From Paractinoplanes toevensis (lineage in GTDB: Bacteria; Actinomycetota; Actinomycetes; Mycobacteriales; Micromonosporaceae), in the NCBI RefSeq assembly GCF_018332695.1, contig NZ_BOQN01000118.1, forward strand, positions 62,001-126,000: 64,000 nucleotides of DNA, read 5' to 3'. The position numbers were made by a program, and so were the translations under genes. Positions 33,840-37,827 of this stretch are shown here, in pieces. Under the pieces are notes generated by a model. That model was not told the DNA's origin. It ran no database searches and was given only the letters and a program-made list of their open reading frames with translations. The stretch's first letter is position 1, and every line of letters begins with the position of its first letter.

Positions 33840-35702
33840 TTACTGGTGTTTGCGGCGGGCCGCGGCCCGGCCTCGGGTCTGCTGGTCGAGGACGACCTTG
33901 CGGATGCGGACCGCGGCCGGGGTGACCTCGACGCACTCGTCCTCGCGGCAGAACTCGAGGGCCTGCTCCAGCGACAGCTTGCGCGGCGGGATCAGTTTCT
34001 CGGTCTCGTCGGAGGTCGACTGACGCATGTTCGTCAGCTTCTTCTCCTTGGTGATGTTGACGTCCATGTCGTCCTGGCGCGAGTTCTCACCGACGATCAT
34101 GCCTTCGTAGACCTCGGTGGTCGGCTCGACGAAGAGCTGGCCGCGCTCCTGGAGGTTGGTCATCGCGAACGCGGTGACCACGCCGGCCCGGTCGGCGACC
34201 AGGGAGCCGTTGCTGCGGGTGCGCAGCTCGCCGAACCAGGGCTCGTAGTCCTCGAAGAGGTGGTGCATGATGCCGGTGCCGCGGGTCTCGGTGAGGAACT
34301 CGGTGCGGAAGCCGATCAGGCCGCGCGCCGGGACCAGCCACTCCATGCGCAGCCAGCCGGTGCCGTGGTTGATCAGCTCTTCCATCCGGCCCTTGCGGGT
34401 CGACAGCAGGGTGGTGATGGCGCCCATGTATTCGTCCGGGGCGTCGATCGTGAGGCGCTCTACCGGCTCGTGGATCTTGCCGTCGATGGTCTTCGTGACC
34501 ACCTGCGGCTTGCCCACGGTGAGTTCGTAGGACTCGCGGCGCATCTGCTCGACCAGGATGGCCAGGGCGAGCTCGCCGCGGCCCTGGACCTCCCAGGCGT
34601 CGGGGCGCTCGGTCGGGAGAACCCGCAGCGAGACGTTACCGACCAGTTCGCGGTCGAGGCGGTCCTTGACCATGCGGGCCGTGACCTTGCCGCCCTTGAC
34701 CTTGCCGACCAGGGGCGACGTGTTGGTGCCGAGGACCATCGAGATGGCCGGCTCGTCGACGGTGATCAGCGGCAGGGGGATCGGATTTTCCGCGTCGGCC
34801 AGCGTCTCGCCGATCATGATGTCGGAGATGCCGGCGATGGCCATGATGTCGCCGGGGCCGGCGCTCTCGGCCGGCTTGCGCTCGAGACCCTCGGTGATGA
34901 GCAGCTCGGAGATGCGGACGTTGCTGACCGTGCCGTCGGTCTTGCACCAAGCCACGGTCTGGCCCTTGCGGATCGTGCCCTCGTGCACGCGGCAGAGCGC
35001 GAGCCGGCCCAGGAAGTTGGACGAGTCGAGGTTGACGACGTGGGCCTGGAGCGGGGCGCCCTCGGTGTAGGTCGGGGCCGGGATCGTCTCGAGGATCGTC
35101 TTGAACAGGACCGACAGGTCGGTGGCGTCCTCGGGGACGGTGCCGTCCTTGGGCATGTTCAGCGAGGCGATGCCGTCGCGGGCACACGCGTAGACGATCG
35201 GGAACTCGATCTGGTGCTCGTCGGCGTCGAGGTCGAGGAAGAGCTCGTAGGTCTCGTCGACGACCTCTTTGATCCGGGCGTCGGGACGGTCGACCTTGTT
35301 GATGATCAGGATGATCGGGAGCTTGGCGTGCAGCGCCTTGCGCAGCACGAAGCGGGTCTGCGGGAGCGGGCCCTCGGAGGCGTCGACCAGCAGGGCGACG
35401 CCGTCGACCATGGTGAGGCCGCGCTCGACCTCACCGCCGAAGTCGGCGTGACCCGGGGTGTCGATGATGTTGATGGTGACCGGGCCACCCTCGGCGGGCT
35501 GATAGCTGATCGCCGTGTTCTTGGCGAGAATGGTGATGCCCTTTTCCCGCTCCAGGTCCATGGAGTCCATGGCGCGGTCGGCCATCTCGCCACGCGCGTG
35601 GGACTGGCTCCCCTGGCGCAGCATGGCGTCGACCAGGGTGGTTTTGCCATGGTCGACGTGAGCGATGATGGCGACGTTGCGTAGGTCGGTGCGGGTCTGC
35701 AT
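33840..35702 (-). CDS. typA: Translational GTPase TypA/BipA
   Basis: This 620-residue ribosome-associated GTPase of the EF-G family is involved in ribosome assembly and stress adaptation. G-motifs are G1 [10 protein letters not shown]2 around EREKGITI, G3 [15 protein letters not shown]4 NKVDRPDAR and G5 near VYACARDG. Domains II, III, V and the TypA-specific C-terminal domain follow. The protein ends in a basic [11 protein letters not shown] tail. The ATG start at 35702 is normal for the family. Confidence 0.96.
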
Positions 35703-36656: not shown

Positions 36657-36686
36657 TTGTCGTGCGCCCGGGGCCTGTAGTAGGGT
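36657..36686 (+). promoter_or_regulatory. Candidate promoter of the L11-like gene
   Basis: TTGTCG (36657-36662), an 18-bp spacer and TAGGGT (36681-36686) resemble a housekeeping promoter, with a leader of about 70 nt. The spacer is not 8 bp after a 9-mer, so this is not the damage-type element. Confidence 0.5.
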
Positions 36687-36718
36687 CCTCGGGTTAGTCG
36701 TGTGTTGATGATGCTGGC

Positions 36719-36745
36719 GAGCTGCACTTTCAAAGCTTGCAGCTC
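36719..36745 (+). promoter_or_regulatory. Hairpin in the leader of the L11-like gene
   Basis: GAGCTGCA (36719-36726) and TGCAGCTC (36738-36745) form 8 perfect base pairs, with an 11-nt loop that can pair further (CTT with AAG). The hairpin ends a few nt before the AAGGAG ribosome binding site, which suits translational feedback control. Confidence 0.55.
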
Positions 36746-36765
36746 ACCCTAAGGAGCCCTACGCA

Positions 36766-37191
36766 ATGCCGCCCAAGAAAAAGACCCATGAGGTAACCCT
36801 CGCGCTTGAGGCGGGTAACGCCGCGATGGTCGACCTCGGCAAGATGCTTGGTCCGACCGGGGCCAACATGCGGGCCGTGAAGGTGGAGTACGACGAGGCC
36901 ACCTCGAAGAACCGGGGCGAGATCATCCCGGTCGTCGTGTCCGTCTACGAGGACCGCAGCCACACGCTGGTCTACAAGACGCCGCCGACCAGCTTCCTGA
37001 TCCGCAAGGCTCTGGGGATCCAGTCCGGCGCGTCCAACCCGCTGACCCAGACCGTCGGCACCCTGAGCACCACCCAGGTCAAGGAGATCGCCGAGCGCAA
37101 GCTCCCCGACCTGAACGCGAACGACGTCGACGCCGCGATCCAGATCGTGGCCGGCACCGCCCGCTCGATGGGTGTCAAGGTCGCGCAGTAG
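36766..37191 (+). CDS. Divergent ribosomal protein L11 paralogue
   Basis: This 141-residue protein is related to ribosomal L11 over its whole length. The C-terminal rRNA-binding domain is well kept (LNANDVDAAIQIVAGTARSMGV, TKxPP-like YKTPPTSFLIRKALGI). The N-terminal domain, which contacts elongation factors and thiopeptides, is altered: AGNAAMVDLGKMLGPTGANM replaces the usual proline-rich AG-x-A-x-P-x-PPVGPALG-x-x-GVN and is one residue shorter. It is not next to L1 (rplA), nusG or secE, so it is probably a second copy, not the housekeeping rplK. AAGGAG precedes the ATG and a strong terminator follows. It may be an alternative or thiopeptide-insensitive L11; that is inference. Confidence 0.85.
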   Translation: MPPKKKTHEVTLALEAGNAAMVDLGKMLGPTGANMRAVKVEYDEATSKNRGEIIPVVVSVYEDRSHTLVYKTPPTSFLIRKALGIQSGASNPLTQTVGTLSTTQVKEIAERKLPDLNANDVDAAIQIVAGTARSMGVKVAQ

Positions 37192-37199
37192 CTTTTGCG

Positions 37200-37231
37200 A
37201 AAGCCCCCGGGGTCGACCCCGGGGGCTTTTT
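37200..37231. terminator. Bidirectional terminator after the L11-like gene
   Basis: The 30-bp palindrome at 37200-37229 (arms AAAGCCCCCGGGGTC and its complement) is followed by TTTTT on the plus strand. The matching A-run gives a T-run on the minus strand for the convergent ClpP-like gene. Confidence 0.93.
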
Positions 37232-37827
37232 CATGCCTTGCCGACGATCTCGTCGATCAGGCCGTACTCCACGGCCTCCTGGGCGCTGAGGATGCGGCCC
37301 GAGGACAGGTCGTCCTCGATCCGGCTGCGGGGCTGGCCGGTTACCTCGACCAGGCGCAGCACGATCTCCTCCAGCTCACGCAGGTGCTGGCCGGCGGCCC
37401 GGGTCACCTCGTCGGCGGTGCCGGTGACCCCGGCGGCGCGCGGCTCGGTCAGCTTGAACCGGGCGTGCCGGTAGGCGGTGCGCTTGTCGGCGGCGGCGAG
37501 CACGGCCACCACCGCGCCGGCCGCCTGCGCGGTGACCAGGGCATGCACCGGGGCGGTCATCGTGTCGATCACGTCGATGACGGTGAGCGCGGCGCTCAGG
37601 TCGCCGCCGTCGCCGGCCACGTGCAGCTGGACCGGGGCGGGGCCGGCCGCGTCGAGGGTGAGCAGGGCCGCCGAGATGCCGGTGGCGGCCTCGTTGCTGA
37701 GATGGCCGCGGATCATGACGATGCGCTGGTCGAATAGCCGTTCCTCGAGCCAGGCGGGCAGGCCGGGGCCCGGCACGGGCTCGTTCTGCGGGGGCCGGCC
37801 CCAACTCGGATCGTGCCGCATCTCCAC
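37231..37827 (-). CDS. ClpP-like protein lacking catalytic residues
   Basis: This 198-residue homologue of the Clp protease proteolytic subunit ends in a recognisable ClpP tail (SAQEAVEYGLIDEIVGKA). The nucleophile motif GQAASMG is replaced by AQAAGAV, so Ser becomes Gly104. The catalytic His of MIHQP is replaced by Thr127 (KLTEP). The oxyanion-hole NSPGG region reads GDGGDL. The protein should therefore not be a peptidase and may be structural or regulatory. GTG 37827 has AGGAGG 6 nt upstream. It converges on the L11 paralogue and shares its terminator. Confidence 0.8.
   Translation of the reverse strand: MEMRHDPSWGRPPQNEPVPGPGLPAWLEERLFDQRIVMIRGHLSNEAATGISAALLTLDAAGPAPVQLHVAGDGGDLSAALTVIDVIDTMTAPVHALVTAQAAGAVVAVLAAADKRTAYRHARFKLTEPRAAGVTGTADEVTRAAGQHLRELEEIVLRLVEVTGQPRSRIEDDLSSGRILSAQEAVEYGLIDEIVGKA

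What the first reader, a model, noticed from the sequence alone, without database searches (positions are those of the whole stretch)
36766..37191. L11 paralogue that has lost the proline-rich thiopeptide/factor-binding loop
The C-terminal rRNA-binding half is L11-like. In the N-terminal domain the near-universal AG-x-A-x-P-x-PPVGPALG block is replaced by AGNAAMVDLGKMLG, with all of its prolines gone and one residue missing. In L11, changes at these prolines confer thiostrepton and micrococcin resistance and affect factor and RelA function. A stand-alone gene with its own promoter, leader hairpin and strong terminator suggests a regulated alternative L11.
Basis: partly seen in the sequence, partly recalled or inferred. 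Interest (0 to 1): 0.72.

Follow-up and report, generated by a model that had tools for sequence, protein, structure and literature searches.

The report
Proline-less L11 replaced the original
In this soil bacterium and its genus, the ordinary ribosomal protein L11 gene is missing and a relative lacking the part that thiostrepton-type antibiotics grip has taken its place; in cousin genera the same relative is kept as a spare copy behind what looks like a stress-sensor switch.

Summary
The gene at 36766-37191 encodes a full-length L11 with the substituted, one-residue-shorter block that was reported, but it is not a paralogue. It is the only L11 found in the genome, and rplK is missing from its usual place: nusG is followed directly by rplA. 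All 67 sampled genomes of the GTDB genus (16 single-contig) show variant-type L11 scores only, and seven named Pseudonocardiaceae genomes have made the same swap. Other actinobacteria carry the variant beside canonical rplK. Variants form one clade; the replacement versions group within it. The four canonical block prolines are absent at their columns in 96 of 96 variant rows. Spare copies usually have a MerR-type promoter (24 of 36; sole copies 0 of 59; canonical rplK 0 of 77); at one locus a divergent MerR gene carries the same site. No variant gene has a YcaO gene within 100 kb on its contig. One sole-variant genome has 23S A1067G, the only hit among 397 genomes searched. Best reading: an inducible L11 giving resistance to GTPase-centre antibiotics became the permanent, only L11. 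Replacement is shown; resistance is inferred, and some published evidence points against it.

The parts
36766..37191 (+). Gene for the only L11 found in this genome (proline-less variant uL11, 141 aa)
36811..36852 (+). Codons 16-29, AGNAAMVDLGKMLG: replaced proline block, one residue shorter than canonical
36719..36745 (+). Leader hairpin, arms 36719-36726 and 36738-36745; sequence conserved, pairing weakly supported
36751..36756 (+). Shine-Dalgarno-like AAGGAG
37200..37231 (+). Inverted repeat with T-run, likely intrinsic terminator (not listed by the automatic scan)
   Evidence: seen; negative
33840..35702 (-). typA/bipA, conserved upstream neighbour in 48 of 48 Actinoplanes-type loci (context, not part of the function)
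37231..37827 (-). ClpP-like gene, conserved downstream neighbour in 48 of 48 loci (context)

Best explanation
This is the only uL11 of the organism. It descends from an actinobacterial accessory L11 family in which the proline block that thiopeptides stack on is replaced (PAPPVGP to MV-DLGK). In relatives that keep canonical rplK the accessory gene usually sits behind a MerR-type promoter. I infer that a drug or stress switches it on and that the protein is then built into ribosomes, so that GTPase-centre antibiotics (thiostrepton/micrococcin type) bind poorly. In the Actinoplanes lineage and several Pseudonocardiaceae the gene is found without that promoter and the canonical rplK is gone, so the altered ribosome is permanent. 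Shown: sole L11, no rplK between nusG and rplA, one clade, purifying selection, loss of the prolines, MerR-type promoter on most spare copies and on no sole copy examined. Inferred: incorporation into ribosomes, drug resistance as the reason, the inducing ligand, the order of events.
For: Sole L11. No rplK between nusG and rplA in G000 nor in 22 of 26 named genomes; the 4 that keep it are exactly the two-copy ones. 67 of 67 genus genomes variant-type by E-value, 16 single-contig. 18 other family genomes with two matches, each one variant (204-255 bits) plus one canonical-level match (145-156 bits); order sample of 397: variant alone in 7, with a second lower-scoring match in 19. Tree: variants 100/99; 22 sole rows together 86/70, two-copy Planosporangium just outside at 99/88. 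Block prolines: 0 at all four columns in 96 of 96 variant rows, 81/80/80/70 of 81 canonical rows; Lys at the GP proline in 96 of 96. Promoter with inverted repeat in 24 of 36 two-copy variants, 0 of 59 sole, 0 of 77 canonical; 1.2% of random windows. Stricter scan of 31 context loci: 13 sites, 12 at variant-L11 promoters, 1 before a divergent merR gene (positions matched by me); that protein is MerR family, best PDB sequence match the TipA DNA-binding domain. A1067G in G951, a sole-variant genome, and in no other of 397 searched. L11 fold kept. Literature: thiazole rings stack on uL11 prolines; proline, A1067 or A1095 mutations confer resistance (PMC5960728, passages).
Against: No phenotype or expression data. 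A. teichomyceticus L-27 was engineered with a vector described as used for thiostrepton-resistance screening in actinomycetes (PMC3897980, passages and section 11), which hints that the strain is thiostrepton-sensitive; the text read gives no dose and no native MIC. A review reports that L11 mutations did not prevent thiostrepton binding while rRNA mutations weakened it (PMC3917276, passages). A1067 and A1095 are unchanged in 9 of the 10 sole-variant genomes whose 23S was read. TclQ keeps PAPPVG, so resistance does not require loss of this block. Some two-copy variants have a proline one or two columns off (13 and 3 of 36). The MerR ligand is unknown, 12 of 36 two-copy variants fail the promoter rule, and Planosporangium, nearest to the sole clade, lacks the site.
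Confidence: 0.6

Rival explanations
1. The block was changed for factor or stringent-response reasons, not drugs: the variant L11 retunes EF-G/EF-Tu or Rel activation at the GTPase centre (slow growth, development), and the MerR-type promoter of spare copies answers a metabolic or redox signal.
For: The same site is the translation-factor binding site (PMC5960728, passages); 9 of 10 sole-variant genomes keep A1067/A1095; the MerR ligand is unknown; one Actinoplanes was engineered with a thiostrepton-marker vector.
Against: The lost residues are those that thiopeptide thiazoles stack on; the one A1067 change seen in 397 genomes lies in a sole-variant genome; the nearest solved relative of the one MerR is the DNA-binding part of TipA.
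Confidence: 0.22
2. Protection against another agent acting at the GTPase centre (an unknown antibiotic, bacteriocin or toxin) rather than classical thiopeptides.
For: Variant genes are not near YcaO on their contigs and 12 of 42 variant genomes have no YcaO, so the pressure would come from outside; ligand unknown.
Against: No other agent of this site is documented in the papers read; thiopeptides are known soil products that bind this block.
Confidence: 0.12
3. Regulated second L11 (paralogue) of this genome.
For: Stand-alone locus with a leader; true of the two-copy relatives.
Against: One L11 only; no rplK between nusG and rplA; variant-type scores only in 67 of 67 genus genomes, 16 of them single-contig.
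Confidence: 0.02
4. Artefact: contamination or a missing contig hides the canonical gene.
For: G000 is a 287-contig draft.
Against: nusG and rplA lie 65 bp apart on one contig; the same arrangement in 22 other genomes; 16 single-contig genus genomes with one variant-type L11; conserved typA/ClpP-like neighbours in 48 of 48 loci.
Confidence: 0.01

Closest known systems
TclQ/TclT, L11 homologues of thiocillin and micrococcin P1 gene clusters
   Same: An L11 homologue that can stand in for canonical L11; [quoted passage not shown]
   Different: TclQ lies in a thiopeptide cluster, keeps PAPPVG with the following proline changed, groups with canonical L11 in the tree and is an extra copy. The window gene is the only L11, has no YcaO in its genome and has lost all four prolines.
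Canonical actinobacterial rplK (secE-nusG-rplK-rplA)
   Same: Same two-domain fold and RNA-binding half.
   Different: 49-51% identity to three canonical relatives, other locus, proline block replaced.
TipA, thiopeptide-sensing MerR regulator
   Same: Spare-copy variants have a long-spacer MerR-type promoter, and the one adjacent MerR found has the same site in front of itself; its DNA-binding part is nearest to TipA among solved structures.
   Different: No TipAS domain found in it; ligand unknown; the window gene lacks the promoter.
Zur-controlled alternative ribosomal proteins such as L31 and L36 (recalled)
   Same: A stress-controlled spare ribosomal protein that swaps into the ribosome.
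   Different: Those exchange zinc-binding for zinc-free forms; the control here looks MerR-type. Recalled, not tested.

Membership tests
Bacterial uL11 | Both L11 domains over Pfam cut-offs | tested here: met
   PF00298 95.8 (cut-off 21.4) and PF03946 51.1 (32.9) bits
Bacterial uL11 | NCBIfam equivalog TIGR01632 cut-off | tested here: not met
   135.7 against 141.85 bits; four spare-copy variant rows also fall short (125.3-140.8)
Bacterial uL11 | Two-domain L11 fold | tested here: met
   model pLDDT 88.1; TM 0.93, 1.2 A to a ribosomal L11
Bacterial uL11 | Proline-rich block PAPPVGP | tested here: not met
   none of the four canonical prolines
Bacterial uL11 | Present in 50S subunits | not testable with these tools
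   expected for an only L11; needs ribosome proteomics
Paralogue (second L11 of a genome) | Another L11 gene in the same genome | tested here: not met
TclQ-type thiopeptide self-immunity L11 | Encoded in a thiopeptide biosynthetic cluster | tested here: not met
   no YcaO anywhere in G000
TclQ-type thiopeptide self-immunity L11 | Groups with TclQ by sequence | tested here: not met
   TclQ falls with canonical L11, (TclQ has a long branch)
TclQ-type thiopeptide self-immunity L11 | Confers thiopeptide resistance | not testable with these tools
   needs MIC or cell-free translation
MerR-controlled accessory L11 | 19-bp spacer promoter holding an inverted repeat | tested here: not met
   0 of 48 Actinoplanes-type loci; the window's upstream stretch printed shows none by eye; 24 of 36 two-copy relatives have it

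The most novel reading that the evidence does not exclude
Actinobacteria own a ribosome-remodelling resistance system independent of antibiotic production: a MerR-type sensor switches on a proline-less L11 that is exchanged into the ribosome. In at least two families this emergency part has ousted the near-universal rplK altogether, so that a whole genus (Actinoplanes and kin) lives on permanently drug-altered ribosomes.
Probability: 0.5. Interest if true: 0.85.

Novelty: new variant of a known kind. Interest (0 to 1): 0.72.

Why it matters
L11 is near-universal, and its proline block is regarded both as a factor-contact element and as the docking surface for thiopeptides. A whole genus that does without it is a natural experiment: it tests whether the block is needed for translocation and the stringent response at all, and it shows how resistance by target replacement can pass from an inducible spare to the only copy. 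The MerR-type promoter of the spare copies offers a ready reporter for the inducing compound. Actinoplanes strains make acarbose and teicoplanin, so use of thiostrepton selection in them would need rethinking if the reading is right.

Tried and rejected
Rejected: paralogue and artefact readings (see rivals). Producer self-immunity is not supported: YcaO search of 42 variant genomes gave none in 12 (G000 among them); in 11 genomes a YcaO shares a contig with the variant gene, nearest about 106 kb (G1013); in the other 19 YcaO lies on other contigs, so adjacency across a contig break is not excluded there (G113 and G221 have the variant near a contig end). Leader: 12 Rfam matches, none reaching its gathering score; consensus fold of 24 leaders with 13 pairs, one with changes on both sides, so no structured regulator is claimed; nine canonical rplK leaders look unlike it by eye. 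Promoter/terminator scan: nothing listed. Neighbours: clustering of 31 context loci showed no common resistance gene by eye in the 25 groups printed; two overlapping sets of seven order-level loci share neighbours, one a hexapeptide-repeat protein; only ten neighbour proteins were scanned in Pfam. tblastn with the Microtetraspora MerR found no relative in the other 30 context loci, which does not exclude other MerR families. Different sole-copy Pseudonocardiaceae genera share no neighbour with one another in the stretches held. Plasmids: L11s below 60% identity only. Paper searches (listings; some listings capped) showed nothing on this replacement; that is not proof of absence in print, since most subscription papers are not held.

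Limits: the random-window background was drawn from the same loci and includes real sites. The 36 two-copy rows include near relatives and are not independent. Named genomes overlap unnamed ones (for example Planosporangium = G053 = G318), so the counts must not be added. The genus count rests on E-values (1e-13 to 1e-11 against below 1e-19); sequences were read for the 48 Actinoplanes-type loci. In one search the second match of most two-copy genomes is below the printed rows. Several independent takeovers in Pseudonocardiaceae are suggested by scattered genera, not by a species tree. Rows left out before counts: L207 (as L059) and L197 (as L048), L225 and L226 (as L056 and L053); rows under 110 or over 170 aa and canonical loci numbered below L079. 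One search needed exact flanks and an assembled 23S, so misses are possible; G000 and G851 gave no 23S hit.

Full report
What is there. The ORF at 36766-37191 (+) encodes a 141-residue L11. Both Pfam domains are over their cut-offs; the NCBIfam bacterial-L11 equivalog cut-off is missed by 6 bits. AlphaFold gives the two-domain L11 fold (pLDDT 88), superposing on ribosomal L11s (best TM 0.93, 1.2 A). The block AGQATPAPPVGPALG of a canonical relative reads AGNAAMVDLGKMLG, one residue shorter. In 96 of 96 variant rows none of the four canonical prolines stands at its column and the GP proline is lysine; 13 of 36 two-copy rows have a proline at the column before the block's first proline and 3 at the one after it, while the 60 sole-copy rows have neither. 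In the model residues 21-31 form a helix.

It is the only L11 found. PF03946 and PF00298 each give one match in the 10.9-Mb genome, and it is this gene. On another contig secE-nusG-rplA run together with 65 bp between nusG and rplA and no rplK. In the family census of 300 genomes, all 67 of the same GTDB genus (16 single-contig) and one of another genus (G028) have best matches of variant type (E about 1e-13 to 1e-11); 230 of the other 232 have a canonical-type match (1.4e-20 or better) and two less complete genomes have none. One genus genome, G212, showed a second weak PF03946 match that the variant profile did not recover. Among 30 named genomes, 19 Actinoplanes-type and 7 Pseudonocardiaceae (two Allokutzneria, two Actinoalloteichus, two Sciscionella, Herbihabitans) have one, variant-type match; Planosporangium, Microtetraspora, Stackebrandtia albiflava and Phytoactinopolyspora have both kinds. 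In the 26 of these whose rplA locus was read, canonical rplK sits between nusG and rplA in exactly the four two-copy genomes and in none of the other 22.

History. In 397 order genomes the variant (181 bits or more; next match 155) is found in 26: alone in 7, with a second, lower-scoring match in 19. In 396 phylum genomes only the window's own reaches such a score (270 bits; next 161). The tree of 84 rows separates variants from canonical L11 (100/99) and groups the 22 sole-copy rows of two families (86/70), with two-copy Planosporangium just outside (99/88); few columns make other forks unsure. In Actinoplanes-type genomes the locus is fixed: typA and the ClpP-like gene were found beside it in 48 of 48 loci and the SLT gene in 42 of 48. 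Sole-copy Pseudonocardiaceae of different genera share no neighbour with one another in the stretches held. G851 has only the variant while six sampled congeners (G736, G826, G875, G884, G907, G984) have one canonical-level match, so at least one switch there looks recent (inference). dN/dS against 15 relatives is 0.05-0.33.

The spare copies look switched. Upstream of two-copy variants lies a promoter of the form TTGACCCTCCAGTNACTGGAG-N4-TAGCGT, with a 19-bp spacer holding an inverted repeat. The rule (hexamers, 19 bp, at least 5 of 7 repeat pairs) is met by 24 of 36 two-copy variants, 0 of 48 Actinoplanes-type and 0 of 11 Pseudonocardiaceae sole copies and 0 of 77 canonical rplK, against 1.2% of random windows; the hexamer rule alone by 30 of 36, again 0 of 59 and 0 of 77. 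Palindromes in spacers of 19-20 bp are typical of MerR-family targets (PMC9909328, passages). In many cases the start codon lies 6-13 nt after the -10, suggesting leaderless transcripts (inference). A stricter scan of 31 context loci found 13 sites, 12 at variant-L11 promoters and one before a divergent gene in Microtetraspora. That gene encodes a MerR-family protein (PF13411, 9.1e-19) whose best solved relative is the TipA DNA-binding domain (1.9e-9); no TipAS domain was found. TipA proteins are drug-bound MerR activators (PMC7762955, abstract and passages). Against a simple story: Planosporangium lacks the site, and no relative of this MerR was found in the other 30 context loci. The sole Actinoplanes-type genes have a Shine-Dalgarno-like AAGGAG and a conserved leader whose structure is weakly supported.

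Why drug resistance is the favoured reason. Thiopeptide thiazoles stack on the uL11 N-terminal prolines and the drug contacts A1067 and A1095; mutations in any of these confer resistance, and 80S ribosomes are resistant most probably because their uL11 differs (PMC5960728, passages). A1067 and A1095 are unchanged in nine sole-variant genomes read, but G951 (its L11 identical to that of Herbihabitans) has A1067G and a further change that I number U1097A by recall, in a 23S copy 88-90% identical to four relatives of its family over 1.9-2.8 kb. The numbering at 1065-1073 fits the bases given in PMC4409310 (passages). A search for non-A at 1067 hit G951 alone among 397 order genomes; it is one event. 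Variant genes do not lie in recognisable thiopeptide clusters: no YcaO in 12 of 42 variant genomes, G000 among them, and where a YcaO shares the contig (11 genomes) the nearest is about 106 kb away (compared by me); in the other 19 genomes YcaO lies on other contigs.

What speaks against it. The papers opened give no Actinoplanes thiopeptide MIC (searches; passages of three of the 41 papers). A. teichomyceticus L-27 was engineered with a vector described as used for thiostrepton-resistance screening (PMC3897980), hinting at sensitivity. A review reports L11 mutations that did not stop thiostrepton binding (PMC3917276, passages). TclQ, said to replace L11 in micrococcin producers (PMC6804068, passages), keeps PAPPVG. 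I therefore hold the replacement as shown, the MerR-type switch of the spare copies as probable, and the drug reading as likely but untested.

Known or new. TclQ/TclT are the nearest known kind (PMC10704990, passages): L11 homologues proposed as immunity. What appears new is an L11 family without the proline block, with a MerR-type promoter as a spare copy, that has displaced rplK across a genus and in members of another family. A genome-mining study lists rplK as a resistance-indicator gene but scores Actinoplanes friuliensis as minus for it (PMC9290621, passages).

Noticed in passing
L272 (G951 contig 23): 23S rRNA with A1067G and a second change in the GTPase-centre loop (GCGTAAAAGC for GCGTAATAGC) in a genome whose only L11 match is the variant; the only non-A 1067 hit among 397 order genomes searched.
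   Followed up: partly
L169 (G597, C227:788-1204): A different actinobacterial lineage has an L11 with AGEANPAKVGQTLG: one proline missing and others replaced, a separate partial loss of the block; that genome shows five L11 matches.
   Followed up: no
L181 and L192 (G492, G481; family f18): L11 copies with Arg in place of the GP proline (PAPPVGRDLG) in genomes with two L11 matches: possibly another kind of spare L11.
   Followed up: no
L057:6945-8000: Microtetraspora niveoalba: a MerR-family gene divergent from the variant L11, with the same inverted-repeat site in front of both genes.
   Followed up: partly
G212 and G978: G212 showed a second weak PF03946 match not recovered by the variant profile; G978 has two L11 matches, the better only at canonical level. 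Neither was resolved.
   Followed up: no
window 36676-36765: The leader is conserved in sequence across Actinoplanes-type genomes (for example around GCTGGCGAGCT and AAGGAG); it could be an autoregulatory site of an L11 cut off from the rplA operon. Structure is not supported yet.
   Followed up: partly
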